Shown piece after piece: positions 8,149 through 60,012 of a stretch of 64,000 nt of DNA. The notes under the pieces were generated by a model. That model did not search any database. It had not been told where the DNA came from and worked only from the letters and a program-made list of their open reading frames with translations. This DNA comes from a virus. A program made the translations under genes and the position numbers. The first letter of the stretch is position 1; each line of letters opens with the position of its first letter. The DNA lies in the IMG/VR virus record IMGVR_UViG_3300025138_000037, positions 1 through 64,000 of that record; one strand, given 5' to 3'.

Positions 8149-8160
8149 AAGTTTGATTAT

Positions 8161-10182: not shown

Positions 10183-10196
10183 AGAGGAGATAGAAC

Positions 10197-10724: not shown

Positions 10725-10733
10725 TTGTGATAG

Positions 10734-10753: not shown

Positions 10754-10779
10754 TAAATATATAAAAAGGAGTAAAAGTA

Positions 10780-12746: not shown

Positions 12747-12758
12747 AGGAGAGTAAAA

Positions 12759-13163
12759 ATGGCAGTAGTAAATAAAAGAACATTAGTAGATAGTGGCACA
12801 CGCCATGTCGTAATGTTTGAAATCAACAATGCAACAAATGATGGAGTATCAGTTGTAGACGCTTCAACATTAAGAGGACACGTTGAAAAACCAACACTAG
12901 ACATTAGAAGTATTAAATGGAATACAACCGCAGCAACAAGTGATGTAGCATTTGAATTTGACGCTAGTACAGACGACCACGGAATATCAGTACATGGTAG
13001 TGGTGAGTTTGGTTTTCATGGTAAACAACCAATGATAACAAATCCAGAAAGTTCTGGCGTTACTGGTGATATAGTTATCACTAACGCAAGTGCTGTTACA
13101 GGTACTTTTATTTTAGAAGTAGTAAAAACTAAAGGTTATACTAACTCAGGACAAACAAGATAA
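12759..13163 (+). CDS. Small beta-rich structural protein (paralogue A)
   Basis: The 134-residue Ser/Thr/Gly-rich protein is predicted to be beta-rich, with no charged tails. It shares its plan with the next gene: a GT..VVMF strand, a DGVSVVDAS / GETLVAKMDAS strand, a central segment, then GDI(V/L)(I/F) near the C-terminus. This suggests a tandem duplication of a head decoration or other virion protein. A GGAGAG RBS precedes the ATG; the stop overlaps the next start by one base. Confidence 0.7.
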   Translation: MAVVNKRTLVDSGTRHVVMFEINNATNDGVSVVDASTLRGHVEKPTLDIRSIKWNTTAATSDVAFEFDASTDDHGISVHGSGEFGFHGKQPMITNPESSGVTGDIVITNASAVTGTFILEVVKTKGYTNSGQTR

Positions 13164-13549
13164 TGGCTGATACAGTAACTTCACAAACTATAACAGATGT
13201 AGCCGGCACAAAGACCGTAATGAAATTTACGAATAAGAGTGACGGTACAGGAGAAACACTTGTAGCAAAGATGGACGCTAGTGAATTAAATCACGCTTCA
13301 ACATCTACAAAGATTGCAAGAGTAATTTATAGTATTAACACAACGGATCCTAAAGGGTCCGTTGAAATACTCTTTGACGGTACAACAAATGCAACCGCAT
13401 TGTTTCTTGCCGGTCAAGGTACAATAGATTTACAAACATCTGCTATACAGATATCTAACAATGCGAGCTCACCAACAGGCGACATTTTGTTTTCCACTCA
13501 CAATTTTGTAAATGGAGACAGTTATTCCGTCATTTTAGAGGTTAGATAA
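13163..13549 (+). CDS. Small beta-rich structural protein (paralogue B)
   Basis: The 128-residue protein is a paralogue of its upstream neighbour (shared GT.TVMKF, MDAS, SPTGDILF pattern) and starts in the TAATG overlap with it. It is likely a capsid-associated protein given its place before gp21-gp22-gp23. Its gene contains a strong internal inverted repeat at 13341-13364. No named family recognised. Confidence 0.7.
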   Translation: MADTVTSQTITDVAGTKTVMKFTNKSDGTGETLVAKMDASELNHASTSTKIARVIYSINTTDPKGSVEILFDGTTNATALFLAGQGTIDLQTSAIQISNNASSPTGDILFSTHNFVNGDSYSVILEVR

Positions 13550-13581: not shown

Positions 13582-14241
13582 ATGAAACTAATTAGAGAAG
13601 AAATCAATCAGGCTGAATACATTATTGAAGCAGATAATAATGGTAAAAAGTCTCATAAAATTAAAGGTATCTTCATGCAGGCAAACATTAAAAACCGCAA
13701 TGGTCGTGTTTACCCACAGGAAGTATTAGAAAAAGAAGTAGGCAGATATAATAGAGAATTTGTACAGAAAAAAAGAGCGTTTGGTGAGTTAGGACATCCT
13801 GACGGACCAACAGTTAATTTAGAGAGAGTATCACATATCATAACTAAACTTGAAGGTGATAACAAAGGTAACTATATTGGTGAGGCAAAAATTACAGATA
13901 CACCATATGGTAAGATTGTAAAATCTCTAATTGACGAAGGCGCACAATTAGGAGTTTCATCTAGGGGCATGGGTTCCTTGGAGAATAAAGGTGGTACGAA
14001 CTATGTAAAATCAGACTTTTACTTAGCAACTGCTGCTGATATTGTTGCAGACCCTTCAGCACCTCAAGCATTCGTCAATGGCGTAATGGAAGGTAAAGAA
14101 TGGGTATGGGACAATGGTATTATCAAGGAACAAGATGTTTCTGAAATACAAGACCAACTAAACCGTGCTAGGCGTGATGAGATTGCCAAAGCGCAAACTA
14201 CTGCTTTTAATAATTTCATGCAGAAATTAACAAAACAATAA
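13582..14241 (+). CDS. gp21: gp21 prohead core protease
   Basis: This 219-residue serine protease of the herpesvirus-assemblin-like prohead family has the catalytic His72 in FGELGHPDGP and Ser126/Ser127 in GVSSRGMGS. It cleaves scaffold and capsid precursors during head maturation, in T4 after (L/I)xE. Its own N-terminus contains an I-I-E/A site at residues 14-17, consistent with self-processing. It sits immediately upstream of its substrates gp22 and gp23. Confidence 0.92.
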   Translation: MKLIREEINQAEYIIEADNNGKKSHKIKGIFMQANIKNRNGRVYPQEVLEKEVGRYNREFVQKKRAFGELGHPDGPTVNLERVSHIITKLEGDNKGNYIGEAKITDTPYGKIVKSLIDEGAQLGVSSRGMGSLENKGGTNYVKSDFYLATAADIVADPSAPQAFVNGVMEGKEWVWDNGIIKEQDVSEIQDQLNRARRDEIAKAQTTAFNNFMQKLTKQ

Positions 14242-14290: not shown

Positions 14291-15577
14291 ATGTCAGAAG
14301 AATTAAACAACGAAACAGAAATCGTTTCTGAAGCTCCTAAGGGACAAGACGCACCAAAAGCAGGTGCGACTAAAGGTGATTCCATGGTAAAAGGCGGTGA
14401 TTACGAAGACGGAGGACCTGCAGTAGTAAGTCCAGACGCAAAATCTTCACCAACTGACCACGCTAAGAAAGTGAAAAAGGATTCATCTGCTCCTACGAAA
14501 GGTGCCGGTTCTCCGGACTCTGCTGAAAAAATGAAAAAAGAAGACGCAGATATGGACGACGCTGATGAAAAAGAAGACGATAAAGAAGATGAAAAAGATA
14601 TGGAAGAAGCAATGCCTAAAACTAAATCAGGCATGATTCAAGCAATGTATGACAACATGAATAAAATGAAAAAGTCAGACATAGCTGCTTCTTACAAAAA
14701 AGTCATGGCTGCGATGAAAGGCATGGACGAAGAAGACGAAGACGAAGACGAAGATAAAAAAGAAAAAGAAATGGCATCTGCCTCTGAGAAAAAAGAAGCA
14801 GTAGAAAAAAGAGTAAAATCTATTGATGTATCAAATGATGTTAACGCTCTTGTTTCTGGCGATGATAGTTTATCTGAGGACTTTAAAACTAAAGCTGCAA
14901 CAATCTTTGAAGCGGCAGTTAAATCAAAAGTAAAATCTGAAATTGAAAGATTAGAAGATGAATACTCAAATGAAATAACTGAAGCGAAAGAAAGTGTTAA
15001 AGAAGATTTAACTAATAAAGTTGATAACTACTTAAACTATGTTGTGGAAGAGTGGATGAAAGAAAACGAATTAGCAATTGAAAAAGGTATCAAAGGCGAA
15101 ATTGCGGAAGATTTCATTGGCGGTCTAAAACAATTATTTGAAGACCATTACATTGACGTACCAGATGAAAAATATGATGTCCTAGAGGCAAAAGAAAAAG
15201 AACTGGATGAAGCGAAAGCTAAAATCAATGAAATGACGGCTTCAATGATTGAAAAGTCTCAACAAATCGCAGAGTTTACTAAAGAAGAAATTTTAGAAGA
15301 CATTACATCTGGTCTTGCAGACACAGAAGTAGAAAAACTAAAATCTTTAGTAGAAGATATAAGTTACGAAGGTGCTGATGAGTACAAGAAAAAATTAGAA
15401 ACTATTAAAGAATCTTATTTTGGTGCATCAAAAGCAGCTCCGGAATCAACTGAAAACGTTGATACAATTAACAACACTAGTAATGACAGCACAGTAGCGG
15501 ATATGTCTGATAGCATGTCTCGTTATACGGATGCAATTAGTAGGGTAAAAGGTAGAGATATCTACAATAACCAATAA
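14291..15577 (+). CDS. gp22: gp22 prohead scaffold protein
   Basis: The 428-residue protein is extremely charged, with a long Lys/Asp/Glu-rich N-terminal half including runs of EDEDEDED and a helical, coiled-coil-prone second half (about 180-370). This is the hallmark of the T4-like scaffold gp22, which fills the prohead and is degraded by gp21. The T4 protein is about 270 residues; the extra acidic N-terminus is common in marine relatives. It lies between gp21 and gp23. Confidence 0.88.
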   Translation: MSEELNNETEIVSEAPKGQDAPKAGATKGDSMVKGGDYEDGGPAVVSPDAKSSPTDHAKKVKKDSSAPTKGAGSPDSAEKMKKEDADMDDADEKEDDKEDEKDMEEAMPKTKSGMIQAMYDNMNKMKKSDIAASYKKVMAAMKGMDEEDEDEDEDKKEKEMASASEKKEAVEKRVKSIDVSNDVNALVSGDDSLSEDFKTKAATIFEAAVKSKVKSEIERLEDEYSNEITEAKESVKEDLTNKVDNYLNYVVEEWMKENELAIEKGIKGEIAEDFIGGLKQLFEDHYIDVPDEKYDVLEAKEKELDEAKAKINEMTASMIEKSQQIAEFTKEEILEDITSGLADTEVEKLKSLVEDISYEGADEYKKKLETIKESYFGASKAAPESTENVDTINNTSNDSTVADMSDSMSRYTDAISRVKGRDIYNNQ

Positions 15578-15599: not shown

Positions 15600-16862
15600 A
15601 TGTATAATTCAGAAAACTTACAGGAAAAGTGGTCTCCGGTTCTTGAGCATGCGGATCTACCAAAAATAGATAACCCATACAAAAGAGCGGTAACTGCTGT
15701 TATCCTAGAAAACCAAGAAAAAGCGGCGAGAGAAGACAAAGCTTTCTTAGGTGAGATTGCGAATGTAACTGGTTCAGCGATAGCTAACTGGGACCCAATC
15801 CTAATTTCACTTGTAAGAAGAGCAATGCCAAATCTTATTGCTTACGACATCTGTGGCGTTCAACCAATGACAGGACCAACTGGTCTTATCTTTGCAATGA
15901 AGTCCAGATTTACTTCAAACTCAGGTACAGAAGCACTATTTAACGAAGCAGATTCAGATTTCTCTGGAACTGGAACTCAAAGTGGTACTCTAAATCCAGG
16001 GTTGATGAACGATACTACAACTTCCGTTACTGCTGGTACTGGTATTGCAACTGCTACGGCAGAAGCATCATCATCTTTTGCAGAAATGGCGTTCAGTATT
16101 GAGAAATCAACTGTAACAGCTAAAACTAGACAGTTAAAAGCTGAGTACACAATGGAACTTGCACAAGACCTTAAAGCAATTCACGGCTTAGACGCTGAAA
16201 CTGAATTAGCTAACATCTTGTCTGCTGAGATTCTTGCTGAGATTAACCGTGAAGTAGTAAGAACTATTTACGAAAAAGCAAAAAAAGGTGCAGGTGTTAA
16301 TACAACAACTGCTGGAACTTTCGACCTTGATACTGATTCAAATGGTAGATGGTCTGTTGAGAAATTCAAAGGACTAATGTTCCAAGTTGAAAGAGACGCT
16401 AACGTAATCGCACAAGAAACAAGAAGAGGAAAAGGTAACATTGTTATCTGTTCATCTGACGTAGCAAGTGCTTTACAAATGGCAGGTATCTTAGATTACA
16501 CTCCTGCTTTAAACAACAGTCTAAACGTAGATGATACTGGTAATACTTTTGCTGGAACATTAAACGGTAGATACAAAGTATATATTGATCCATATGCAAG
16601 TAACAATACTGCTGCTCAATACTATACTGTTGGATATAAAGGAACTTCACCTTACGATGCTGGTATGTTCTATTGCCCATACGTTCCACTACAAATGGTG
16701 AGAGCGGTTGGTGAGAACACATTCCAACCAAAAATTGGTTTCAAAACTAGATATGGTCTAATTAGAAACCCATTTGCGGAATCAAGTGCTCAAACTACTG
16801 ACACTGGAAGTGACCAATCAAACATTTACTACAGAATGGTAAAAGTTACAAACTTAATGTAG
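15600..16862 (+). CDS. gp23: gp23 major capsid protein
   Basis: This 420-residue HK97-fold capsid protein has marine gp23 landmarks: LEHADLPKI, ISLVRRAMPNLIAYDICGVQ, MTGPTGLIFAMKSR and FKTRYGLIRNPFAE near the C-terminus. Cleavage of the N-terminal part by gp21 is expected; FLGE near residue 52 is one candidate site. At 420 residues it is shorter than T4 gp23 (521). A strong terminator follows, as expected for the most highly expressed virion gene. Confidence 0.95.
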   Translation: MYNSENLQEKWSPVLEHADLPKIDNPYKRAVTAVILENQEKAAREDKAFLGEIANVTGSAIANWDPILISLVRRAMPNLIAYDICGVQPMTGPTGLIFAMKSRFTSNSGTEALFNEADSDFSGTGTQSGTLNPGLMNDTTTSVTAGTGIATATAEASSSFAEMAFSIEKSTVTAKTRQLKAEYTMELAQDLKAIHGLDAETELANILSAEILAEINREVVRTIYEKAKKGAGVNTTTAGTFDLDTDSNGRWSVEKFKGLMFQVERDANVIAQETRRGKGNIVICSSDVASALQMAGILDYTPALNNSLNVDDTGNTFAGTLNGRYKVYIDPYASNNTAAQYYTVGYKGTSPYDAGMFYCPYVPLQMVRAVGENTFQPKIGFKTRYGLIRNPFAESSAQTTDTGSDQSNIYYRMVKVTNLM

Positions 16863-16987: not shown

Positions 16988-18052
16988 ATGTTTAAAAAAC
17001 TGACTTCATTCCTGATTGTAGTATCAGGCATGATTTTATTATCTACAACTACACAAGCAAAAGACCCTAAAATTGGTTTCATCTACATTGGTCCTCCAGG
17101 CGACCACGGCTGGACTTATATGCACGACCAAGGTAGACAAGACATTGAAATTGAATTAGGTTTTGAAACCACATACATTGAAAACGTACCAGAAAACGCT
17201 GATGCTACTAGAGCAATACAAAAATTAGCAGCTTCTGGACACGATTTAATCTTTACAACATCTTTCAATTACATGGATCAAACTTTAGAAGTGGCAGAAC
17301 AATACCCAGATATAAAGTTTGAACATGCAACTGGTTACAAAAGACTAGACAATGTTTCAACATATTCATCAAGGTTCTATGAAGGTAGAACTATTAGTGG
17401 ACATATTGCCGCTAAAGAAAGTAAGACAGGCATTATAGGTTATATTGCCAGTTTTCCAATACCTGAAGTTGTAAGAGGTATTAACGCTTTCATGTTGGCT
17501 GCACAAAAGGTAAATCCAGATATTCAAATTAAGATTATATGGGCATACACTTGGTACGACCCGGCAAAAGAAGGTGATAGTGCAAAAACTTTAATCAATC
17601 AAGGTGCAGATATTATAGTACAACATACTGATACATATGCACCATGTAGAGTGGCACAGGAGATGGGTGTGAAAGCATTTGGTCAAGCAAGTGACCAATA
17701 TAAGTTTTGTCCAGAGGCACATCTAACCGCAATCATTGATGAGTGGGGACCCTACTATGTTGCAAGAGCGAAAGCATTAGCAGATGGTACATGGGAATCT
17801 ACTGATACATGGAAAGGTTTAGATAGTGGCATGGTACAAATGGCAAAATACACCAATATGCATCCAAATACAAAGTATGAGGCGATTGCCATAGAGAATG
17901 CTTTGAGTGAAGGTAAAATGCATTCCTTTGAAGGACCTATTTACAATCAGGCAGGCGAACTAATGGTACCAGAAGGTGAAGTTGCACCTGACGGTATGTT
18001 ACTAGGCATGAACTGGTACGTAAAAGGTATAGACGGACAACTACCACAATAA
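16988..18052 (+). CDS. BMP-family periplasmic substrate-binding protein
   Basis: The 354-residue protein has a cleavable signal peptide (basic MFKK, hydrophobic stretch to about residue 20, TTTQA then K) and no lipobox Cys. It then has the BMP/Med-family start IGFIYIGPPGDHGWTYMHDQ and DLIFTTSF, VRGINAFMLAA and GADIIVQHTDT. Cellular homologues deliver nucleosides or related small molecules to ABC transporters in the periplasm. No permease or ATPase gene is nearby, so the product would have to use a host transporter. The gene is flanked by terminators on both sides and looks like a host-derived auxiliary metabolic gene inserted behind gp23. Ligand unknown. Confidence 0.88.
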   Translation: MFKKLTSFLIVVSGMILLSTTTQAKDPKIGFIYIGPPGDHGWTYMHDQGRQDIEIELGFETTYIENVPENADATRAIQKLAASGHDLIFTTSFNYMDQTLEVAEQYPDIKFEHATGYKRLDNVSTYSSRFYEGRTISGHIAAKESKTGIIGYIASFPIPEVVRGINAFMLAAQKVNPDIQIKIIWAYTWYDPAKEGDSAKTLINQGADIIVQHTDTYAPCRVAQEMGVKAFGQASDQYKFCPEAHLTAIIDEWGPYYVARAKALADGTWESTDTWKGLDSGMVQMAKYTNMHPNTKYEAIAIENALSEGKMHSFEGPIYNQAGELMVPEGEVAPDGMLLGMNWYVKGIDGQLPQ

Positions 18053-46065: not shown

Positions 46066-46252
46066 ATTGACATACACAGTAAAAACTGTTAAAAAACAAA
46101 AAGATATACAGTTTGAAGTATGGCAAGAGAAACCAAAGGGTAGATTAAAAACCTTTGATTTTAAAAAGGATGCTAAAGAACTTGCAGATTTCCACAATAA
46201 TAATCAAGTGTGGAGTGTAAATGGTGGTATTCCTAACTTTCTACTTGACTAA
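45992..46252 (+). CDS. Small basic protein after gp41
   Basis: The 86-residue protein has a Lys/Arg/Ser-rich N-terminus (SNTTSKTKKPRKKSTRSSRT) and a C-terminal beta-like KDIQFEVWQEKPKG and VWSVNGGIPNFLLD. AGGAG lies just upstream of the ATG. It overlaps gp41 by 74 bases in another frame. Its final LLD and TAA stop are formed by the promoter TTGACTAAATAG. Unknown function; nucleic acid binding is possible. Confidence 0.55.
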   Translation: MSNTTSKTKKPRKKSTRSSRTSNSKLTYTVKTVKKQKDIQFEVWQEKPKGRLKTFDFKKDAKELADFHNNNQVWSVNGGIPNFLLD

Positions 46253-46273
46253 ATAGTATTATTAGTATATAAG
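46245..46273 (+). promoter_or_regulatory. Overlapping early-type and late-type promoter
   Basis: TTGACT, 17 bases, TATAAG gives a sigma70-like promoter. ACTAAATA (46248-46255) followed by GTATT overlaps its -35 and matches the late elements. The gene at 46323 could therefore be read at both stages. Confidence 0.45.
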
Positions 46274-46322: not shown

Positions 46323-47381
46323 ATGTTAAGTTTAAAAGGTCACAACCTATTATCTGAAGCACGAAGTCGTGGCGAAGAAATGGAAGAATTTATTATTGCC
46401 GCTGTAAATGGCAGTAAAGAACCTACGTCAAAGTACGGTATACCTGCCGGTGCAGGTAAGAACGTGGCAAAATTTCTCAAATCAAAAGGTATATCAGGCA
46501 AGGGTAAAGTCCTTGGTGCAGATACAATTACTGTAACACCAGAATGGTCATCTTATTGGCCTGGTGGTAGTGTGCCTGGTTCTACGAAAACACCTAAGAC
46601 AGATTTTGTTATAGGTAAAAATAAGATATCATTAAAATCAGGAAGTGCGGCCCAACTAATGAGTGGTGGTCGTAATGAAAGTATTGCTACATTTTACACA
46701 GCGTTGAGTAGTGTTGAAGGTATGCAAAAGAAAATGATTGATAAACTCACAAAGATGTTTGAAGGTCTTGCGCCAGCCAGTGTTGCAGGTAGTGAGTTAG
46801 GTAAAGAAATCAAAAAAGGTAAAGATAAGGCAGTAATGCAAGCAAATGCCTCTCATAAAGAATTAATGGGTGAGTTAAAAGCAATCTTTGCTAAAAACAA
46901 ACAGTTTGCCAATGCATTTGCTTACGAAGCAATGTCTGGTGATGTTAAGTTTGGCCGTAAGTCACTAGGTAGTTGTAGTCATTTTCTCACAACAAGTTTT
47001 GATGGCAAGAAAGCGGCATTGAAAAAAGTATCAGATAAATCTTATGTTAATAAAATTGCAAACCAAATGAAAGTATCTGTACGTTTTAAATCATCTAGTC
47101 AAAAAGTAGGTGGTAAAAAAACTGGTAAATACAAATACTGGTCTGCTGTAGGACTGATTGTCGATAAACTGGAAGAAGAAATGAAACCTATTGAAGGACA
47201 AATACTACATGAAGGTATTATGGACAAACTCAAAGGTATATACAATAGAATGAAAGATTTTGTTGTAAAAATATTCAAAGACATCATGGCCTATGTTTCA
47301 AAAGGATTTAAAAATCTTATATCCTTTTTAGATGTAGAACCAGTTGTTGATGTTAAATCTGATGTAAAGATAGATGTATAG
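46323..47381 (+). CDS. Late-module protein with possible prohead-protease site
   Basis: The 352-residue protein opens a late-type module. It has an N-terminal LLSE/A site (residues 9-13) of the T4 gp21 type and a second LHE/G near residue 299. A central core carries TDFVIGKNKISLKSGSAAQL, which has the look of a restriction-endonuclease-like DFxxG..KxSLK strand. No family name recognised. A nuclease-fold guess rests only on that strand. It overlaps the next gene by eight bases. Confidence 0.6.
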   Translation: MLSLKGHNLLSEARSRGEEMEEFIIAAVNGSKEPTSKYGIPAGAGKNVAKFLKSKGISGKGKVLGADTITVTPEWSSYWPGGSVPGSTKTPKTDFVIGKNKISLKSGSAAQLMSGGRNESIATFYTALSSVEGMQKKMIDKLTKMFEGLAPASVAGSELGKEIKKGKDKAVMQANASHKELMGELKAIFAKNKQFANAFAYEAMSGDVKFGRKSLGSCSHFLTTSFDGKKAALKKVSDKSYVNKIANQMKVSVRFKSSSQKVGGKKTGKYKYWSAVGLIVDKLEEEMKPIEGQILHEGIMDKLKGIYNRMKDFVVKIFKDIMAYVSKGFKNLISFLDVEPVVDVKSDVKIDV

Positions 47382-48612
47382 TTTAAATAATTATTTGGTT
47401 GAGGATAAGAATACTCATTTAGAACATTTAGAAGATGATATAATCAATAATGGTTATGCAGGTGGTCAAAATGCAGTAAACTTCCTTAAAGCAACGGCAG
47501 ATTTACTTTCTGGTAATAGTGCTAAGAGTGTATCTGTTACCGTCAAGTGGGACGGTGCACCAGCAATAGTATGCGGACCTAATCCAGAAACTGGTAAGTT
47601 TTTTGTAGGTACAAAGTCTGTATTCAATGCTAAACCAAAGATTAATTATACTGTACAAGACATTAAGAACAATCATACTGGCGAAGTTGCCAACATATTA
47701 CAAGATTGTTTGAGATATCTTTCTGGTTTGAACATGAAAGAAATATTACAAGGGGACCTGATGTACAGGTCCTCAACACTAAAGAAAACTACTTACAAAA
47801 CAAGTAGTGGCAAATCTGAGCAAATGTTTTCTTTTCAACCTAATACAATTGTTTATATGGTACCTGAAAACTCAGGTCTTGGTAGAAGAATGAACAGTAG
47901 TAAATTAGGTATTATATTTCATACAACCTATAAAGGTAATAAGATGAATAAGTTATCTGCTAAGTTTGGTGCCAATGTAAAGAAACTAAGAAAAACACCT
48001 ACAGTATGGTATGATGACGCTTCATATAAAGATGTATCAGGTCATGCAACAATGACAATAGGTGAAATGCAACAACTACAAAAGACATTAAACATGGCAG
48101 AGGGTAGTTTAAAACAATCTAAAGAAATGTTAAACAAGATTAAAACAGAAACAAGTACATTGTCTGTAGGTGTGCAACTTAAAACATATCTTAACAGTTT
48201 TATTCGTGCAGCCACAGATTTACCAAGTACAAAAGAAGTGGCGACAAAGTTTAGAGAATACTTTGAACAACGAACACAAAAAGAGATAGACAGTAAGAAG
48301 ACAGATAAAGGTAAAGAGAAGTATATTGAAATACAAAAGAATGGTTTAAAATTTATTGATAGTCAAGGTAAACAAGTTTACTTTGCATGTGCCACTTATA
48401 AGACTTTACAAACAGCAAAGAAAATGTTAATAGATAAGTTAAATAAGGCAAAGAGTATAGGTACATTTAAAACAACGCCTAAGGGTCTACAAACAACAAA
48501 TCCAGAGGGATATGTTGCAGTAGATAAAAAAGGTAAGGCAGTAAAGTTAGTAGATAGAATGGAGTTCTCTTTACAAAACTTTACAGCGGCTAAGGCATGG
48601 GATAAGGGGTAA
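47374..48612 (+). CDS. DUF6267-like nucleotidyltransferase / RNA ligase-like protein
   Basis: The 412-residue protein has ligase-like motifs: Lys58-x-Asp60-Gly61 in VTVKWDGAPAIVCG (motif I), FFVGTKS, EILQGDLMY (127-131, motif III-like), NPEGYVAV (Glu378, motif IV-like) and KAVKLVDR (388-395, motif V-like). It resembles DUF6267 phage proteins. Adenylylation of Lys58 is predicted; DNA or RNA ligation is inference. Its first residues MYSLNNYLVE/D resemble T4 internal-protein capsid-targeting sequences. The upstream gene overlaps it. Confidence 0.65.
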   Translation: MYSLNNYLVEDKNTHLEHLEDDIINNGYAGGQNAVNFLKATADLLSGNSAKSVSVTVKWDGAPAIVCGPNPETGKFFVGTKSVFNAKPKINYTVQDIKNNHTGEVANILQDCLRYLSGLNMKEILQGDLMYRSSTLKKTTYKTSSGKSEQMFSFQPNTIVYMVPENSGLGRRMNSSKLGIIFHTTYKGNKMNKLSAKFGANVKKLRKTPTVWYDDASYKDVSGHATMTIGEMQQLQKTLNMAEGSLKQSKEMLNKIKTETSTLSVGVQLKTYLNSFIRAATDLPSTKEVATKFREYFEQRTQKEIDSKKTDKGKEKYIEIQKNGLKFIDSQGKQVYFACATYKTLQTAKKMLIDKLNKAKSIGTFKTTPKGLQTTNPEGYVAVDKKGKAVKLVDRMEFSLQNFTAAKAWDKG

Positions 48613-48613
48613 C

Positions 48614-49135
48614 ATGAAAGAACAAGGTAAAGGTCTTTGGCATAATATCAGAATGAAAAGAAAAAAAGGGAAACCTAAGGCGAAACCTGGTGATAAAGGA
48701 TATCCTGGACCAGGTGCATTTGATAGAGCCAATGAAGAAAAAGAAAAAAGACTAACAACAAAGATTGAAGGTAGAGATTACAAAAAAGAATATGCTAAGT
48801 TTCAATCAACAAAAGAACGTATTGCCTACCGGGCACAATTAGTAAAGTACAATAGAGACAAAGGTACTTATGGTAATGGTGACAACCTAGACGCTTCACA
48901 CAAAGATGGTAAGATTGCCGGTTTTGAGAACGCTAGTAAAAACAGAGGTAGAATAGAAAAGAGTAGAGTAAAAGGCTACAAAGAAATGAGAAAAGAAAAC
49001 GCACCAAATACTGCTGACGCTATGAAAAGATACAAAGCGGGTAAAGCAGGATTTACTGACAAGGCACACCTGAAAGCAAAAGGTAAGATTCCAAGGTCAG
49101 ATGGTGAGAAAAGAAAGAGCGACAAGTACAAATAA
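48614..49135 (+). CDS. Small basic HNH-like protein
   Basis: The 173-residue, Lys/Arg/Gly-rich protein has LDASHKDGKIAGFENASKN and RGRIEKSRVKGYKEMRK (about 97-131), which looks like a treble-clef HNH core (SH..DG..N..N/R). The first 45 residues are disordered and basic (PKAKPGDKGYPGPGAFDRAN). Nuclease activity is not certain, because no Cys zinc pairs are present. It sits between the ligase-like and NMNAT-like genes, and overlaps the latter by one base. Confidence 0.5.
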   Translation: MKEQGKGLWHNIRMKRKKGKPKAKPGDKGYPGPGAFDRANEEKEKRLTTKIEGRDYKKEYAKFQSTKERIAYRAQLVKYNRDKGTYGNGDNLDASHKDGKIAGFENASKNRGRIEKSRVKGYKEMRKENAPNTADAMKRYKAGKAGFTDKAHLKAKGKIPRSDGEKRKSDKYK

Positions 49136-50892
49136 TGAAAACGTTAAAAGAATTACTATCAAAAGGTTCAGTAGGTCGTAAGCAACCTGTAGTGTTTGCC
49201 TTTGGCAGATTTAATCCGCCAACTGTAGGACATCAAAAACTAATTGATAGAGTAATAACAATGGCAAAACGAGTGAAAGGTTTGCCTGTATTGTATGTAA
49301 GTGCTTCACAAGATAAAAAGAAGAATCCACTTACAGCAAAACAAAAATTAGATTATTTGAAGAAAGTATATCCAAGAGGTATCAAATTATTACCTGCTAC
49401 AAATAAAGAGAGAACATTCATGGAGATACTAAAGAACAATTTTGACAAGAAATATACTGATGTTTATATGATTGCAGGTAGTGATAGAGTAGCAGAATTT
49501 AAAAGATTAATTAAGAGTTATAACGGTAAAGATTATAACTTTGATACAGTAAATGTGGTAAGTGCAGGTGAGAGAGACCCAGACGCTGATGGCGTATCAG
49601 GTATCTCAGCAAGTAAGATGAGGGAGTTTGCCACAAGAAATGACTATAAAAATTTTAGGAGTAACCTTATGACAGGCACAAAGGAGAAGGATGCCATGAA
49701 ACTATTTAAAGACCTTAAAAACCAAATGGGCGTTAGAGAGAACATGTTAGCACCTAGTGACAATGACAAAGAATTAAGAGAAGAATACCACAACAATGAA
49801 ATCTTTAATATTAATGAATATGTTGAAAACAAAAAAGATGGCAGTGTTGGAAAAATAATTAAAAGAGGACCAAACTATGTACAATATGAAATGGAAGACG
49901 GTGGTGTACAGAAAGCATGGTTAGAAGACTTAGCACCTAGTGAAAGCTTAGACAGAGATTTACAAGTAGAGAGTGTTGACAAAAAGAAATTAGTATTACA
50001 AAAGAATAGTGAACAACTAAAATCTTTTAAAACATTTGACGAAGAAATTGATTCTGCTAAAGACGCACAGAAAAAAGATAAAGAAAAAAAGAAAGTAGAT
50101 AAGGTAAGAAAAATGCCTCAGACTACACCAGGACAACCGGCAGTGACAGACATTGATAACTGGACACAAGGACCTGACAATGCAGACCAAATCAAAACAA
50201 TGAGAACATTCAATAATAAAACACCAGGACAGGATAGAGATTATTCTAAACTGATAACAACAAGAAAGTTTCAAAAGTTTGAAGGTACTGATAAGACAAG
50301 ACAGGATCCTGATGTTGCAGATAAAAAAGGTACACAACCGGCAAAGTATTACTCTGGTTTATCTAAATCTACAAAGTCAGCGAGAGACGCTCACTTTAAA
50401 AAGAAAACAAAGGTAGATGATGATAGTCCATCAGCATATACACCGGCACCTGGCGATAGTAAAGGTAAAACGAAACCTAGTGTACATACAAAGAAGTTTA
50501 AACAAATGTATGGTGAAGATACAGAGGTACTATCTCTTAATGACGTGAAGATGTGGGCATTAGAAACCTCCACTATCAACAAGTTCAAAGACCGTTATCA
50601 AACTGAGTGGCGTATAGAATTAGACAAGGCTGTTGCAGACCTTTTAGAACAAGTAGAAATAGAAGAAAGCAAAGAAGCAGGTTTAAAGAAGAAAGCAGAG
50701 AAATCTGGTATGCCAATTGGTGTGTTAAGAAAAGTATATAACAGAGGCATGGCTGCATGGCGTACAGGACATAGACCAGGTACAACACCACAACAATGGG
50801 CGATGGCAAGAGTTAATAGTTTTGTGACTAAATCATCTGGTACATGGGGTAAAGCAGATAGTGACTTAGCTAAACAAGTAAGAGGTAAATAG
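49135..50892 (+). CDS. NMNAT-like nucleotidyltransferase with DUF5872-like C-terminus
   Basis: The 585-residue fusion starts with a nucleotidyltransferase domain: GRFNPPTVGH (24-33, the HxGH type motif), GSDR near 115 and ISASKMR (157-163, the ISSTxxR motif). This suggests transfer of a nucleotidyl group as in NMN adenylyltransferases. A long low-complexity, Lys/Asp-rich linker follows (about 210-470). The C-terminal AWRTGHRPGTTPQQWAMAR block matches DUF5872-like domains. The first ten residues MKTLKELLSK look like a capsid-targeting leader. Confidence 0.72.
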   Translation: MKTLKELLSKGSVGRKQPVVFAFGRFNPPTVGHQKLIDRVITMAKRVKGLPVLYVSASQDKKKNPLTAKQKLDYLKKVYPRGIKLLPATNKERTFMEILKNNFDKKYTDVYMIAGSDRVAEFKRLIKSYNGKDYNFDTVNVVSAGERDPDADGVSGISASKMREFATRNDYKNFRSNLMTGTKEKDAMKLFKDLKNQMGVRENMLAPSDNDKELREEYHNNEIFNINEYVENKKDGSVGKIIKRGPNYVQYEMEDGGVQKAWLEDLAPSESLDRDLQVESVDKKKLVLQKNSEQLKSFKTFDEEIDSAKDAQKKDKEKKKVDKVRKMPQTTPGQPAVTDIDNWTQGPDNADQIKTMRTFNNKTPGQDRDYSKLITTRKFQKFEGTDKTRQDPDVADKKGTQPAKYYSGLSKSTKSARDAHFKKKTKVDDDSPSAYTPAPGDSKGKTKPSVHTKKFKQMYGEDTEVLSLNDVKMWALETSTINKFKDRYQTEWRIELDKAVADLLEQVEIEESKEAGLKKKAEKSGMPIGVLRKVYNRGMAAWRTGHRPGTTPQQWAMARVNSFVTKSSGTWGKADSDLAKQVRGK

Positions 50893-50893
50893 T

Positions 50894-51244
50894 ATGAAAA
50901 TCAAAACAATGAAACAAGTAGAAGAAATTGATTTGGTATGTGAGGGTATGATATATGAACATGAAGAAGAAGGAATCATGGAAGCAGAATATCAAGGCAA
51001 GAAAGTTACTTTAAATGACCCTGTAAGAGGTGGCACGAAAAAGTTTTATGTCTATGTAAAGAATGCTAAAGGTAACATTGTGAAAGTATCTTTTGGTGAT
51101 CCTAACATGAGTATTAACCGTGATGACCCAGGTGCTAGAAAGTCTTTCAGAGCGAGACATAACTGTGACCAGAAAAAAGATAAGACAACCGCAGGCTATT
51201 GGTCATGTTATCAATGGCGAGCAGGTGCTAAGGTTGATAATTAG
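50894..51244 (+). CDS. Conserved small protein (DUF6321-like)
   Basis: The 116-residue protein has a conserved core KKFYVYVKNAKGNIVKVSFG and RKSFRARHNCDQKKD then YWSCYQW, a pattern frequent in T4-like phages and resembling DUF6321. Only two cysteines flank the basic segment. A GIME/A site (27-31) precedes the conserved core, so removal of a 30-residue leader by gp21 is possible. A late promoter follows. Confidence 0.62.
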   Translation: MKIKTMKQVEEIDLVCEGMIYEHEEEGIMEAEYQGKKVTLNDPVRGGTKKFYVYVKNAKGNIVKVSFGDPNMSINRDDPGARKSFRARHNCDQKKDKTTAGYWSCYQWRAGAKVDN

Positions 51245-51252
51245 TATAAATA
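51245..51252 (+). promoter_or_regulatory. Late promoter TATAAATA
   Basis: An exact TATAAATA followed by GTAAC, directly after the TAG stop of the preceding gene; ACGGAGAG provides the RBS for the ATG at 51271. Confidence 0.65.
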
Positions 51253-51270
51253 GTAACACGGAGAGAAAAA

Positions 51271-52347
51271 ATGAGATATAGTACAACTATGGCACAAATC
51301 CACGAACAGATGATGTTTGAGGAATACATTGATGGTGTTTTACAATTAGATGATGAAGCATTTGAAGAATACTATGATAGTTTGGATGCGAGCCAACAAC
51401 AAGAATTAGAAGAAGTAATTGGTAAAATTGCAAAAGGAATAGGCAAAGTTGCTGTATCTCCTATTACTTTACCATTTAAGGCAGTAAAAGGTCTTGCTAA
51501 AGGTGCGGCTAAAGTGGCGAAAGGTGCGGCTAAGGCAGTAACATCTAAACCAGCCAAAGCTGCCGGTAGTGCTGTTGCTAAAGGTGCAGGCGCAGCGGCA
51601 AAAGGTGCAGTTGGTGGTATTAAGAAACTTGCAAAAAGACTTTCAACAACAGGTCGAGCAGACGCTGCTGCAAAAAAAGCAGACGCAATCGCAAAGAGAA
51701 CATCTGAAAGAGAAAGACTGGCAAAAGAAAAAGAACGTGTAGATACTGAAAGACAAAAAGCAAAAGACAGTATGAAGAAGGACATTGAAAAAGAAAAAAC
51801 TACCTCTGCTGAATATGAGCCTAAAGATGATAAGAAACATAAGGACATGAAAGAAGACTATGAGACAACTCTTGTAGAATTTACATCTTCACAAATCGCA
51901 AGATTGAAAAAAGAGTATGAAAGTTTAAGAGGCAAAGAAACTGGCGCTAGTCCAGAAAAGTTTGCCAAACTTCGTAAGATAATGGATAGATTTAGTAAGA
52001 AACAATTACTACAACTTGTGAAGGCAGATATACCTATTCTTACATCAGGTGCTAAATCAAAGTTAGTTATTAAGTATGGTATGAAGTGGAAACAATTACC
52101 AGAAGAATTAATACCTTACATAGAGGTATTTGCTAGTGATGAGAAAGAACTAGGTGAGGAAAAGAAAAGTAATTTTAAAGAAGTTGATCCTAAAGTGATA
52201 GATAGGATTGAAAAAATGATGAGAGGTAGTAGACAAGAAAAAGATTCTATTGCTAATATGTTGAATTATTTCATGCCACCAGAAGTAGTGGACATGGTAA
52301 GATATAAACTAAAGATACCGCAAAAACGTGGTAAGATTAAATTTTAA
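51271..52347 (+). CDS. Ala/Lys-rich late protein
   Basis: The 358-residue protein has an acidic N-terminus (EEYIDGVLQLDDEAFEEYYD), an Ala/Lys/Gly-rich middle of near-repeats (KGAAKVAKGAAKAV, about 70-125), a Lys/Glu helix (about 130-190) and a folded helical C-terminus. The central part looks like a DNA-binding histone-H1-like tail. An IHE/Q site lies at residues 10-13. No family recognised. A role as a DNA-bound internal head protein is possible. Confidence 0.55.
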   Translation: MRYSTTMAQIHEQMMFEEYIDGVLQLDDEAFEEYYDSLDASQQQELEEVIGKIAKGIGKVAVSPITLPFKAVKGLAKGAAKVAKGAAKAVTSKPAKAAGSAVAKGAGAAAKGAVGGIKKLAKRLSTTGRADAAAKKADAIAKRTSERERLAKEKERVDTERQKAKDSMKKDIEKEKTTSAEYEPKDDKKHKDMKEDYETTLVEFTSSQIARLKKEYESLRGKETGASPEKFAKLRKIMDRFSKKQLLQLVKADIPILTSGAKSKLVIKYGMKWKQLPEELIPYIEVFASDEKELGEEKKSNFKEVDPKVIDRIEKMMRGSRQEKDSIANMLNYFMPPEVVDMVRYKLKIPQKRGKIKF

Positions 52348-52358
52348 GGGAGACTAAA

Positions 52359-53141
52359 ATGACAAATAAAATACATGGCTGGAATAGTTCTTACTTTGGT
52401 GAGGCAAAACCCGGCAGTTTAAAAGATGTAATCAATGGGATTACTGACAAACAAAATGCATTAGTAGGTGATAAACCTGTTGTTGCAGACCCAATTACAC
52501 CTGAACAAGTAGCAAACAAAGAAAAGTTTCAACAAGAAGAAAAATACACAGTATCTATTGAAACAAACAAGAATGATAAATCTGATGATGGTGAAGGTAT
52601 GGACGCTGTTCAACCTAAAGCAGTAAAAAAGAAGTTTGCTAACAGAAAAGATAAAGATATTGACAACGATGGTGATGTAGATAGTTCAGACAAGTTCTTA
52701 CACAAAAGACGTAAAGCAGTATCTAAAGCAATGGCAAAAGAGAAACACACTAAAGACCATGACGAAGATGAAAAAGAAGAAGGTAACGCTTTTGGTAAAG
52801 CATTACAAGCCGCTAAAGAAAAAGGTGAAAAAACATTCGTAGTATCTGGCAAAAAATTTGATGTGAAAACAAAAAAAGAAATGAAAGATGACGAAGAAGA
52901 AAAGCCTATCAAAGCAAACAAAGACAAAAATGGCGTAGAAGTACATGGCGAATCAACTGATTGGGAAAGAGTTAGAGAGTTCAAAGTATCATCTATGAAA
53001 CAGGCATTAGCTCAAGTATATGGTGAAGCATTAAAAGATGATGATACACCAGAAGTAAAAGATACTATCAAAGGTCTTAAAAAGGCTAGTGGGTTACATG
53101 CTAAACAGGCAAAGTCATTAGAAAAACAGATTAAAGACTAA
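52359..53141 (+). CDS. Charged late protein with EF-hand/dockerin-like calcium loop
   Basis: The 260-residue, highly charged protein carries DIDNDGDVDSSD (100-111), with Asp at EF-hand positions 1, 3, 5, 7, 9 and 12, as in a dockerin-type calcium loop. The rest is Lys/Glu-rich and probably extended. The C-terminus has a helical VKDTIKGLKKASGLHAKQAK segment seen in related virion proteins. GGGAG precedes the ATG. Function unknown; a virion or internal protein that binds Ca2+ is plausible. Confidence 0.6.
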   Translation: MTNKIHGWNSSYFGEAKPGSLKDVINGITDKQNALVGDKPVVADPITPEQVANKEKFQQEEKYTVSIETNKNDKSDDGEGMDAVQPKAVKKKFANRKDKDIDNDGDVDSSDKFLHKRRKAVSKAMAKEKHTKDHDEDEKEEGNAFGKALQAAKEKGEKTFVVSGKKFDVKTKKEMKDDEEEKPIKANKDKNGVEVHGESTDWERVREFKVSSMKQALAQVYGEALKDDDTPEVKDTIKGLKKASGLHAKQAKSLEKQIKD

Positions 53142-53142
53142 A

Positions 53143-53733
53143 ATGAAATATTCCGCTTTGGCGGAGACAGTACATGGCATCCATATTATACAGGAAGCAG
53201 ATAGTCTCCCAACTATTTACTGTGATATGGATGGTGTTCTGGTGGATTTCAACCAAGGCATACAAAATATGTTTAAGGTTAAGTCTAAAGACCCTTCACA
53301 ACCTGGTCCCATGCAAATGGCAGGATATTCTGACGCTAATGATTGGCTAAAAGCGCCAATGACGGCACAAAAATGGCAACCTATCACTAACTATGGCATG
53401 TTTTGGCCTACACTACCGTGGATGAAAGACGGTCTAAAGTTGTGGTCCTATATAAGAAAGTTCAATCCTCATATACTATCTGCTTATACACCCTATGATA
53501 AGAATAGTATACGAGGTAAACAATTATGGATACAACGTAATCTAAAGATTAAGGATTCAAGTAAGATACACTTAGTAAGAAGACAAGAAAAGAGAGTATA
53601 TGCCAATGGTAATGTACTTATTGATGATTATGGTAAGAATGTGAAAGAATGGAAGGCATACAAAGGTATTCCTATCAAACATAAAAATACGGCAACTACT
53701 ATTTCAGCTTTAAGAAAACTAGGTTATAAATAG
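53143..53733 (+). CDS. HAD-family 5'(3')-deoxyribonucleotidase-like protein
   Basis: The 196-residue protein has the HAD motif I YCDMDGVLVDF with Asp28 and Asp30, a WPTLPWMKDG cap-like segment, ILSAYTP as motif II, and VLIDDYGKN as motif IV. Phosphate release from deoxynucleoside monophosphates is likely by similarity. An unusual leader of 18 residues ends with IIQE/A (16-19), just before the HAD core, which would suit cleavage by gp21. The stop TAG is part of TATAAATAG. Confidence 0.75.
   Translation: MKYSALAETVHGIHIIQEADSLPTIYCDMDGVLVDFNQGIQNMFKVKSKDPSQPGPMQMAGYSDANDWLKAPMTAQKWQPITNYGMFWPTLPWMKDGLKLWSYIRKFNPHILSAYTPYDKNSIRGKQLWIQRNLKIKDSSKIHLVRRQEKRVYANGNVLIDDYGKNVKEWKAYKGIPIKHKNTATTISALRKLGYK
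53725..53732 (+). promoter_or_regulatory. Late promoter TATAAATA overlapping a stop codon
   Basis: An exact TATAAATA; TAT AAA TAG also encodes the last Tyr, Lys and stop of the nucleotidase gene. AAGGAG precedes the ATG at 53772. Confidence 0.65.
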
Positions 53734-53771
53734 TAACAGTTATATAACAAACTTAATTAAGGAGAATTAAA

Positions 53772-55538: not shown

Positions 55539-55734
55539 ATATGGTGCAGGTGGCGTTCCTTACTACGAACAAACCTCAGACATTGAAAAAGAACAAAAAG
55601 ATTTAGAAGCGTCTTTGAAACAATCAAAAGCGGCAAAAGCAGAGAGAGTGACAAAGAAAAAGAAAAAAGTAATCCAGGAAATCATGGGAGATGACCTGAA
55701 AGAACAAAGGGAGTTATTAGATGAAATCATTTAA
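55522..55734 (+). CDS. Small Lys-rich protein
   Basis: The 70-residue protein (AQKIRYGAGGVPYYEQTSDI start, then a Lys/Glu helix with KKKKK) overlaps both neighbours. ATG 55522 is chosen because AAGG lies eight bases upstream. The conserved RYGAGGVPYYEQ start argues for a real gene. Unknown function. Confidence 0.58.
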   Translation: MAQKIRYGAGGVPYYEQTSDIEKEQKDLEASLKQSKAAKAERVTKKKKKVIQEIMGDDLKEQRELLDEII

Positions 55735-56152
55735 AGAGTTTGACAACAAACAGATAGATGAAGTATTGTCTTCAACTACTCCAGTAAATGCACCTGCTGA
55801 AAGTGATATGGCATTAAACGATATAACAAATGACGAGATTGTTAGCCGTATCAATAAGTTTGTTGGTTCAATTGCATCCATGGAACACATTAATCCTATG
55901 GCAGCAGTAAATCACTTACGAAGCAAGTTGCACGGTTTAGGGGTAGAGTTTGCAGGTGATACGGAGTTACCTGAAGACGCTAAAGACGGAACAATTAAAA
56001 TACCATTAAGTAAATTTGGTGGTGTGTATGGAAAAACAGGTGAAGAACCTGCAGGTGAGGTAAAAAATGATGATGGTATAGTAAGAAGTTTATCACTTAC
56101 ATACGAAACATTAAAAAACGGAGCATGCAAGGTTTACGCTAAATTAGTTTAG
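55721..56152 (+). CDS. Conserved virion-region protein
   Basis: The 143-residue protein begins MKSFKEFDNKQIDE, like the leaders of T4-like internal and head proteins. The rest is a small alpha/beta domain (VSRINKFVGSIASMEHINPM, then IKIPLSKFGGVYG). It overlaps its upstream neighbour by 14 bases. Found commonly in this structural cluster in relatives; role unknown. Confidence 0.58.
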   Translation: MKSFKEFDNKQIDEVLSSTTPVNAPAESDMALNDITNDEIVSRINKFVGSIASMEHINPMAAVNHLRSKLHGLGVEFAGDTELPEDAKDGTIKIPLSKFGGVYGKTGEEPAGEVKNDDGIVRSLSLTYETLKNGACKVYAKLV

Positions 56153-58217: not shown

Positions 58218-58966
58218 TGTTAGGACTACAACCAGAATTTTCGTGGAAGAACGCAACAATAATGGCGAAAGCGGCAGCAACAGCATACAATGATTTGACC
58301 GCATTTCAAAAACAATTTGACCCAGAAGCAGTATTATTTGATAAAGACGGTACACAAGTATTTTGTTATAAAGATGGTAAACATGCTTGTGTTGCATTTA
58401 GAGGTACAGAACCAACAGCATGGTCAGATATTAAAGCAGATTTAAAAATAAGACGAGTAAAATGTCCTACAGGATTTGTCCATAGAGGATTTAGAGACGC
58501 ATTAGACGAAGTATGGGCAGATGTAGTTGCCTGGATTGCTAAACAAAAGTGTGAACATGTATTCTTTACTGGTCACAGTTTAGGTGGTGCATTAGCGACA
58601 CTAGCTGCAAGTAGATGGAACACAGTAACAACTCATTTATATACATATGGGTCACCAAGAGTAGGTGGTAAAAAGTTCATACAATCTTTTAAAACAAAAG
58701 AAAGATATAGATTTAGAAACAATAACGATATCGTAACAAGAGTACCATTTGAAGTATTTGGTTACAAACATGTATCAGGTGAGGGTGGTAACTTTATATA
58801 CTTTGATATTGATGGTAATTTAGCGACAAAATTTAGCAGATGGTATATGTTTAAACAATGGTGGAAAGGTACATTTAGAGGTGTGTCTCATCTACAGATA
58901 GATGGTTTTAGTGACCATGGCATACATAACTACCACGATTATTGTAAAAGAGAAATGGATAAGTAA
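58217..58966 (+). CDS. Lipase class 3-like alpha/beta hydrolase
   Basis: The 249-residue protein has the class 3 lipase signature: CVAFRGTEPTAWSDIKADL, FVHRGFRDAL, the nucleophile elbow FFTGHSLGGALA with Ser121, YGSPRVGG, NNNDIVTRVP for the Asp, and SDHGIHNYH for the His. A lipid or ester bond is the expected target. It opens the lysis-like gene cluster, so a role in membrane breakdown at lysis, or in the virion during entry, is plausible. There is no signal peptide. Confidence 0.85.
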   Translation: MLGLQPEFSWKNATIMAKAAATAYNDLTAFQKQFDPEAVLFDKDGTQVFCYKDGKHACVAFRGTEPTAWSDIKADLKIRRVKCPTGFVHRGFRDALDEVWADVVAWIAKQKCEHVFFTGHSLGGALATLAASRWNTVTTHLYTYGSPRVGGKKFIQSFKTKERYRFRNNNDIVTRVPFEVFGYKHVSGEGGNFIYFDIDGNLATKFSRWYMFKQWWKGTFRGVSHLQIDGFSDHGIHNYHDYCKREMDK

Positions 58967-59253
58967 TGTGGGATATGATATCTCAAATGGCAGGTGATAG
59001 ACTATGGATTTACACCGCTATTGCAGGTTCTTTACTGAGTGCTGCCTTTTTATTCTGGTTTAAAGATACAAGAATGGCAACATGGGGTGTCGCCAAGTTT
59101 GACCGTACATTAGAATATCTAGTAAATAGATGGGGTTGGACATGGTTACAGAATGACCCAGACGCATGGCGTAAGAAATACCCACGCATAACAAAAAAGA
59201 TAGACGATTTAGAAAGCAGATTAGACGAATTAGAAAAATTTGATAAACAGTAA
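58966..59253 (+). CDS. Small membrane protein of the lysis cluster
   Basis: The 95-residue protein has one N-terminal transmembrane helix (about 14-32, YTAIAGSLLSAAFLFWF) and a Trp-rich then coiled-coil C-terminus (IDDLESRLDELEKF). Placement between lipase and spanin genes suggests a lysis accessory, possibly holin-like, though one helix is minimal. Coupled at both ends by one-base overlaps. Confidence 0.6.
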   Translation: MWDMISQMAGDRLWIYTAIAGSLLSAAFLFWFKDTRMATWGVAKFDRTLEYLVNRWGWTWLQNDPDAWRKKYPRITKKIDDLESRLDELEKFDKQ

Positions 59254-59705
59254 TGTTCAGTAGTTTGAAAATAGGTTTGGTATTATTAATGATGGCAGGT
59301 GCCGGTGGAGGTTTTCTATATGTCAAAAAATTACAAAAAGATAATGAAATACTTAAAGTCAATCAGGCTAAACTTGAAACGGCTGTGGAAGAAAGTACGG
59401 CTGTTATTGAACAACAAACTAAAGACTTAGGTAAAATAAGAGATACATTAAGTAAAGTACAAGAACAAAAAGACAGATTACAAAAAGACAAAGACGCATT
59501 GAGTAATAGACTAGGTAAGCATGATATTGGTAATCTTGCAGAAAATAAACCTGGTCTTGTAGAGAAAATAATTAACAAAGCAAGTGATAGTGCTACCAGA
59601 TGTTTAGAAATTGCAAGTGGTAGTCCTTTAACGGAAGAGGAGATAAATGGAACGCCTAATAGGGAATGTCCTGGTTTTTGGCCTGACGATACTGTTTCTG
59701 AATAG
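59253..59705 (+). CDS. Probable inner-membrane spanin (Rz-like)
   Basis: The 150-residue protein has an N-terminal transmembrane anchor (about 5-22, KIGLVLLMMAGAGGGFLY) and a long coiled-coil periplasmic part (about 28-90), then a short C-terminal domain. This is the i-spanin plan. The next gene overlaps it in another frame and encodes an outer-membrane lipoprotein, the classic Rz/Rz1 arrangement. Confidence 0.8.
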   Translation: MFSSLKIGLVLLMMAGAGGGFLYVKKLQKDNEILKVNQAKLETAVEESTAVIEQQTKDLGKIRDTLSKVQEQKDRLQKDKDALSNRLGKHDIGNLAENKPGLVEKIINKASDSATRCLEIASGSPLTEEEINGTPNRECPGFWPDDTVSE

Positions 59706-60012
59706 TTGTGCAGGTCTAGCTGTAAAGGAGATATCTAATTATAAGATTGAAAAAAAGCGGGAACCGTTAGCGTTAACTGCCCCATCCCCTTTAAGTTTAC
59801 AGGATGTAGATTGGATTATAATAACAAAAGATAATGCTGACGAAGTATTTGATAAGATAAAGAATGAAAAGAACGGTGACTATGCTTTGTTTGCAGTTAC
59901 AGATAAAGGTTATGAAAAACTTGCTCTGAACATGGCAGATATCAGAAACAAGTTGGCGGAACAAAGACAAATCATTCTGTCATATAAGGAATACTACGAG
60001 GATGGCGAATAA
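59647..60012 (+). CDS. Probable outer-membrane spanin lipoprotein (Rz1-like)
   Basis: The 121-residue protein has a lipoprotein signal peptide (LIGNVLVFGLTILFLNSCAG) with the lipobox L-N-S-C at 18-21. The short mature part is predicted to be exported. It overlaps the i-spanin gene by 59 bases in a different frame. Together they are expected to fuse inner and outer membranes at the last lysis step. GGAG lies just upstream of the ATG. Confidence 0.8.
   Translation: MERLIGNVLVFGLTILFLNSCAGLAVKEISNYKIEKKREPLALTAPSPLSLQDVDWIIITKDNADEVFDKIKNEKNGDYALFAVTDKGYEKLALNMADIRNKLAEQRQIILSYKEYYEDGE

What the first reader, a model, noticed from the sequence alone, without database searches (positions are those of the whole stretch)
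46323..53733. Late enzyme module that may be packaged in the head and ejected
Seven consecutive genes under late-type promoters encode enzymes or charged proteins (ligase-like, HNH-like, NMNAT-like, EF-hand, HAD nucleotidase) rather than ordinary virion parts. Several begin like the capsid-targeting leaders of T4 internal proteins and contain (L/I)xE sites of the gp21 type: LLSE/A (46323 gene, 9-13), YLVE/D (47374 gene, 7-11), GIME/A (50894 gene, 27-31) and IIQE/A directly before the HAD core (53143 gene, 16-19). gp21 itself has IIE/A at 14-17. The inference is a set of enzymes loaded in the prohead, trimmed by gp21 and injected to act on host nucleotides or RNA at once. Such short sites also arise by chance in charged proteins.
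Basis: partly seen in the sequence, partly recalled or inferred. Interest (0 to 1): 0.75.

Follow-up and report, generated by a model that had tools for sequence, protein, structure and literature searches.

The report
Ocean-phage enzymes tagged for head packaging
A virus of the ocean bacterium Pelagibacter (SAR11) carries a run of enzyme genes whose products very likely get a short disposable tag that loads them into the virus head during assembly, so that they could enter the next cell together with the DNA.

Summary
The window is a pelagimyophage contig colinear with HTVC008M. The eight ORFs at 46323-53733 exist as described, under a late promoter motif shared with gp21/gp22/gp18 (TAAATAGTA; 8 of 9 copies lie just upstream of a gene, 4 of them in this module). 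In this one sequence the (L/I)xE sites prove little. Homologues prove much more. In the 46323 family the leader is otherwise free to vary, yet P1=Glu in 25/25 and P3=Leu in 24/25 distinct sequences, with P1'=Ala/Gly. That is the gp21 consensus, and it matches the phage's own gp23 site (FLGE|I). The 47374, 50894 and 53143 families behave alike. Leaderless homologues in other phages begin exactly at the predicted cut (M-AKYQG, M-SKNTHLEH). Cyanophage NMNAT-like relatives found in virions by published mass spectrometry (S-SM1, S-CREM2, S-SCSM1) begin with near-perfect T4 capsid-targeting leaders (MKKFSAFLNE|A; T4 MKTYQEFIAE|A). Four other S-CREM2 virion proteins do too.

So head loading and gp21 trimming is the best explanation for 46323, 47374, 50894, 53143 and neighbouring 55721; uncertain for 49135 and 51271; unsupported for 48614 and 52359. 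Injection and enzyme targets are inferred. I did not find the tag described for this phage family in the papers held.

The parts
46250..46258 (+). late promoter motif TAAATAGTA upstream of the module
46323..47381 (+). 352-aa cargo protein; leader aa 1-12 (nt 46323-46358), predicted cut LLSE|A; nuclease-like residue pattern (E21, D94, S103-L-K105, Q111 invariant), fold not confirmed
47374..48612 (+). DUF6267 protein, 412 aa; leader aa 1-10 (nt 47374-47403), predicted cut YLVE|D; invariant K58-W-D-G, E378-G-x-V, K391..DR
48614..49135 (+). 173-aa basic protein, no leader in this genome; HNH label not confirmed
49135..50892 (+). NMNAT/cytidylyltransferase-like protein with C-terminal DUF5824, 585 aa; catalytic motifs intact; only an Alt-like MKTLKE|LL possible
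50886..50894 (+). late promoter motif TAAATAGTA
50894..51244 (+). 116-aa protein (homologues annotated HVA1 family); leader aa 1-30 (nt 50894-50983), predicted cut GIME|A
51247..51255 (+). late promoter motif TAAATAGTA
51271..52347 (+). 358-aa Ala/Lys-rich protein; possible site QIHE|Q, weak evidence
52359..53141 (+). 260-aa protein with EF-hand-like loop; YFGE|A here but YFGEP in relatives, so no credible site
53143..53733 (+). HAD 5'(3')-deoxyribonucleotidase-like protein, 196 aa; leader aa 1-18 (nt 53143-53196), predicted cut IIQE|A
53727..53735 (+). late promoter motif TAAATAGTA upstream of 53772
55721..56152 (+).
13582..14241 (+). gp21 prohead protease, N-terminal IIE|A; homologues IAE|A, LTE|E, VE|A
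14291..15577 (+). gp22-like scaffold with many (L/I)xE sites (by position against HTVC008M annotation)
15600..16862 (+). gp23 major capsid protein; leader aa 1-52, cut FLGE|I aligned with T4 FLTE|A

Best explanation
The module encodes cargo proteins made late together with the head. A short N-terminal leader docks each cargo on the scaffold core of the prohead, and gp21 then cuts after (L/I)xE, releasing the mature enzyme inside the capsid, where it is packed with the DNA. Shown here: late promoter motif, leaders, conserved gp21-type sites, leaderless homologues that start at the predicted mature N-terminus, and the same leader on cyanophage enzymes reported in virions. Inferred: docking on gp22, actual cleavage, presence in this phage's virion, ejection into the cell. 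Cargo with good support: 46323 (nuclease-like?), 47374 (DUF6267), 50894, 53143 (HAD nucleotidase) and 55721. Possible: 49135 (NMNAT-like) and 51271.
For: (1) Site conservation against a variable background. 46323 family: P1=E 25/25, P3=L 24/25, P1'=A or G, while P2, P4 and P5 carry 2.7-3.5 bits of entropy. Sites near the domain start by clustered leader: 46323 14/14 (3.5 expected from shuffled leaders), 50894 34/35 (12.6), 47374 21/23 (8.8), 53143 14/16 (5.2). (2) The same motif is in the phage's own gp23 (FLGE|I against T4 FLTE|A) and in gp21 homologues. (3) Leaderless homologues start at the predicted cut: Kolga MAKYQGRTVKLN against GIME|AEYQGKKVTLN; P-HM2 and S-CAM9 M[SA]KNTHLEH against LVE|DKNTHLEH. 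(4) Virion MS: NMNAT-like proteins in S-SM1 (PMC3037559), S-CREM2 (PMC10665884) and S-SCSM1 (PMC9602691; annotated virion protein). Their N-termini are MKKFSAFLNE|A, MKNFSSFLTE|A and MKSFLQFLKE|A. S-CREM2 ORF6, ORF12, ORF13 and ORF14, also in its virions, carry FxxF[LM]xE or LxxFLxE. (5) A T4-derived leader pattern over six proteomes: 10/68 module genes, 5/1016 others, p=1e-9; the same pattern finds ipII and ipIII in T4. (6) Late promoter motif.
Against: A position matrix built from T4 and cyanophage leaders does not separate the module from other genes in the window or HTVC008M (AUC 0.51 and 0.46); pelagimyophage leaders have drifted from the T4 form. No virion proteome of a pelagimyophage was found. 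The authors of the cyanophage studies note that co-purification was not excluded. One DUF6267 clade keeps MFSFKGF but has no Glu. 48614 and 52359 lack sites. Leaders within a family are related, so shuffle tests overstate independence.
Confidence: 0.8

Rival explanations
1. The leaders target the proteins to the head and are cut, but the cargo acts inside the prohead or on the packaged DNA (scaffolding, DNA condensation or trimming) and is not an injected effector set.
For: Several products are small or highly charged (50894, 51271, 52359). T4 IPs also sit among the packaged DNA (PMC3012670).
Against: NMNAT and nucleotidase catalytic motifs are intact, which a packing role would not need. T4 internal proteins and Alt are ejected (established knowledge; PMC5694885).
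Confidence: 0.2
2. Late cytosolic enzymes that are not packaged; the N-terminal Glu motif is a conserved domain edge, and the virion MS hits in cyanophages are contamination.
For: Single-sequence motif counts are weak; the cyanophage authors mention carry-over (PMC10665884, PMC9602691).
Against: The same leader precedes unrelated folds. The motif has the P1/P3/P1' pattern of gp21 with free P2, and domains exist without it. All four non-structural, non-lysis virion enzymes of S-CREM2 carry it.
Confidence: 0.1
3. The leader is an encapsidation tag that is not cleaved in most cargo (targeting without trimming).
For: A DUF6267 clade keeps MFSFKGF without Glu; NMNAT of this clade keeps MKTLKELL without a clear site.
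Against: P1 and P3 conservation in four families would be unexplained.
Confidence: 0.08

Closest known systems
T4 internal proteins IPI/IPII/IPIII (capsid targeting sequence)
   Same: Short N-terminal leader ending in (L/I)xE|A, late expression, gp21-type protease in the same phage, unrelated cargo behind one kind of leader
   Different: Cargo here is a conserved, syntenic run of recognisable enzymes rather than small fast-changing inhibitors; pelagimyophage leaders are longer and drifted, several without the F/Y-xx-F core
T4 Alt (packaged ADP-ribosyltransferase, cut at ITE-6)
   Same: An enzyme carried in the head, trimmed by gp21 after a very short leader; MKTLKE|LL of the window NMNAT resembles it
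   Different: No ADP-ribosyltransferase domain detected; no evidence yet of C-terminal trimming
NMNAT-like virion proteins of cyanophages (T4-GC190; S-SM1, S-CREM2, S-SCSM1)
   Same: Same family, same leader type, and in S-SM1 the same genomic neighbourhood (DUF6267 next to NMNAT)
   Different: Published as virion-associated without a packaging signal being named; cyanophage DUF6267 has no leader; the window NMNAT leader is drifted
phiKZ/SPN3US ejection proteins with prohead-protease propeptides
   Same: Multi-protein ejected cargo trimmed by a gp21-related protease
   Different: Several propeptides exceed 100 aa there; no homology of cargo shown

Membership tests
T4-type internal head proteins (IP/Alt class) | 10-30 aa N-terminal targeting leader shared by unrelated proteins | tested here: met
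   strict T4 form in relatives and 55721, drifted form in the window genes
T4-type internal head proteins (IP/Alt class) | prohead protease site (L/I)xE|(A/G/S) at the end of the leader | tested here: met
   for 46323, 47374, 50894, 53143, 55721; not met for 48614 and 52359; unclear for 49135 and 51271
T4-type internal head proteins (IP/Alt class) | gp21-type protease encoded by the same phage | tested here: met
T4-type internal head proteins (IP/Alt class) | late expression with the head genes | tested here: met
   promoter motif only
T4-type internal head proteins (IP/Alt class) | present in the mature virion | tested here: inconclusive
   published MS for cyanophage relatives only; none found for this phage or HTVC008M
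T4-type internal head proteins (IP/Alt class) | cleaved N-terminus and ejection into the host | not testable with these tools
   needs MS and infection experiments
NMNAT/cytidylyltransferase (49135) | (H/T)xGH-type and ISxxxxR-type motifs, Pfam above cut-off | tested here: met
   PF01467 29 bits against 21; GRFNPPTVGH, ISASKMR
HAD NT5C nucleotidase (53143) | DxDGV motif, Pfam above cut-off | tested here: met
   PF06941 26.9 bits against 24.8; DMDGV
DNA/RNA ligase superfamily (47374) | motif I KxDG, motif IV EGxV, motif V Lys, ligase fold | tested here: inconclusive
   residues invariant, but no profile, PDB or fold match
PD-(D/E)xK nuclease (46323) | E...D...(D/E)xK...Q in an alpha-beta-beta-beta-alpha core | tested here: inconclusive
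   E21, D94, SLK105, Q111 invariant and strands fit, but Ser replaces D/E and no fold match
HNH endonuclease (48614) | HNH profile match | tested here: not met
   no HNH family in Pfam or PHROGs

The most novel reading that the evidence does not exclude
One of the commonest phage groups of the ocean pre-loads its heads with a coordinated set of nucleotide and nucleic-acid enzymes. The set holds a DUF6267 covalent nucleotidyltransferase-like protein and NMNAT (both matched by PHROG 455), a HAD phosphatase, a nuclease-like protein and, in HTVC008M, a zeta-toxin/AAA_33-type P-loop protein with its own MIPFILKE|G leader. These would act at time zero, for example to restore NAD+ or to heal nucleic-acid ends after host defence, before any phage gene is expressed.
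Probability: 0.25. Interest if true: 0.88.

Novelty: new variant of a known kind. Interest (0 to 1): 0.7.

Why it matters
It would turn a block of 'hypothetical' genes, conserved across pelagimyophages, Melnitz-type phages and (for part of it) several hundred cyanophage genomes, into a defined class: injected cargo that can be recognised by its leader. It offers a simple explanation for why NMNAT-like enzymes keep appearing in cyanophage virions, and a sequence rule to predict further cargo (SAM lyase, kinase and a Cas9-annotated protein in S-CREM2). It makes a practical question testable with existing isolates: what does the phage put into the cell before it makes anything?

Tried and rejected
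The T4-leader position matrix on the window alone gave no separation, so a claim from this sequence alone was dropped. PDB profile searches with both unknown families, Foldseek of both AlphaFold models (pLDDT 74 and 67) and hhalign of DUF6267 against T4 Rnl2 and gp30 gave nothing usable. PADLOC had no hits, so no defence-system reading. Plain TATAAATA as late promoter is not enriched; the longer TAAATAGTA is. The 52359 site YFGE|A was rejected because relatives have YFGEP. A loose leader pattern over S-CREM2 did not correlate with virion presence (p=0.24), while the tight core [FYL]xx[FYH][LIVM]xE did (5 of 7 hits, p=0.01).
Full report
WHAT IT IS. The window is a 64-kb virus contig colinear with Pelagibacter phage HTVC008M. 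The module lies between gp41 and gp61, as in HTVC008M and cyanophages, and follows the helicase in Melnitz.

LATE EXPRESSION. The motif TAAATAGTA occurs nine times on the + strand; eight copies lie within 110 nt upstream of a + gene start, and those zones cover 12.4% of the window. They precede the gp22 scaffold, the sheath-position gene at 8206, the genes at 2940 and 18093, and in the module 46323, 50894, 51271 and 53772; gp21 has TATAAATAG. A published attempt to find late promoters in pelagimyophages had failed (PMC7029224).

WHAT THE PROTEASE CUTS HERE. gp23 reads FLGE|IANVTG at the place where T4 gp23 reads FLTE|AEIGG; Melnitz has FLSE|A and P-HM2 VLTE|A. gp21 N-termini end in IIE|A, IAE|A, LTE|E or VE|A. 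The T4 Alt cut (ITE-6) is from PMC5694885; the gp23 cut after E65 is established knowledge.

CONSERVATION OF THE CARGO SITES. From about 300 IMG/VR loci I took distinct leaders. 46323 family: 29/29 have (L/I)xE before the domain; in the alignment of 15 proteins (27-83% identity to the window) only L10 and E12 are conserved in the leader. Column entropies: P1 0.00, P3 0.24, P1' 0.72, against P2 2.66, P4 3.32 and P5 3.45 bits. 50894 family: 95/96 distinct leaders, P3 mostly I/L/V, P1' A/S. 47374 family: 57/67; one clade lacks Glu. 53143 family: 41/43, with very different leaders (IIQE|A, VTHFSE|A, LVAE|E, NIVE|E, VVSE|Q). 49135: 41/78; Melnitz-like forms have IIE|A directly before the NMNAT core, the window clade has MKTLKELL.

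LEADERLESS HOMOLOGUES START AT THE CUT. Kolga, a 48.7-kb pelagiphage of another type, starts its 50894 homologue MAKYQGRTVKLN; the window has GIME|AEYQGKKVTLN. Cyanophage DUF6267 starts M(A/S)KNTHLEH where pelagimyophages have LVE|DKNTHLEH.

THE SAME LEADER ON PROTEINS FOUND IN VIRIONS. S-SM1 virions contain the cytidylyltransferase T4-GC190 (PMC3037559), whose N-terminus is MKKFSAFLNE|AER. S-CREM2 virions contain cytidylyltransferase ORF154 (MKNFSSFLTE|AD), SAM hydrolase ORF6 (MKDFDSFLEE|F), kinase ORF14 (KRFDAFLTE|E), 'Cas9' ORF12 (LRFASFMAE|AA) and ORF13 (MKDLHSFLTE|Q) (PMC10665884). S-SCSM1 virions contain NMNAT (PMC9602691), MKSFLQFLKE|AA. S-SM2, P-RSM6, S-CRM01, P-TIM40 and ACG-2014b have the same form. 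The S-CREM2 DUF6267-like gene (58890-59777) has no leader and is not in its virion table. The T4-derived pattern hits 10/68 module genes and 5/1016 others in six proteomes, and ipII and ipIII in T4. I found no paper in the held library that describes capsid-targeting leaders in cyanophages or pelagiphages (one search returned only one review of T4 work).

LIMITS. For the window alone the T4-type matrix gives no separation. Relatives are not independent. No virion data exist for this phage in what I could search, and cleavage and ejection are untested. Enzyme identities: NMNAT-like and HAD nucleotidase good; DUF6267 as nucleotidyltransferase and 46323 as nuclease are residue patterns without fold support.

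WHAT IT DOES. Best guess: the cargo is delivered with the DNA and acts before phage transcription. NAD+ supply is one candidate, given NMNAT and the known use of NAD+-restoring enzymes by phages against NAD-depleting defence (for example PMC12774641, seen as abstract). Nucleic-acid end repair is another, given a KxDG protein, a HAD phosphatase and, in HTVC008M, a zeta-toxin/AAA_33-type P-loop protein with leader MIPFILKE|G. I give the specific function low confidence.

VERDICT.

Noticed in passing
L327 (S-CREM2 OR473000) 3837-13331, minus strand: A second cluster of leader-bearing proteins (SAM lyase, 'Cas9', kinase-like, two small ORFs), all reported in S-CREM2 virions; ORF12 annotated Cas9 has no Pfam match here.
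   Followed up: partly
L001:13086-13748: HTVC008M has an extra module gene (gp129), a zeta-toxin/AAA_33-type P-loop protein starting MIPFILKE|G, absent from the window.
   Followed up: partly
window 49135-50892 and 47374-48612: PHROG 455 matches DUF6267 (its positions 22-342) and the NMNAT-like domain (419-705), so the two exist fused in some phages and probably work together.
   Followed up: no
window 48614-49135: Relatives of this leaderless basic protein have (L/I)EE directly before KGLWHNI (e.g. ETELEE|KGLWHNI), as if a leader was lost in the window lineage.
   Followed up: no
L129, L166 and related loci: A DUF6267 clade keeps MFSFKGF but has TTQD/TTKE in place of (L/I)xE: possible targeting without cleavage.
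   Followed up: no
L082-L108: Many 53143 homologues have no upstream ATG and seem to start with GTG (VKNLYDVLNEVTE), so annotated starts in this family may often be wrong.
   Followed up: no
window 16988-18052: 354-aa ORF after gp23 with no PHROG match.
   Followed up: no
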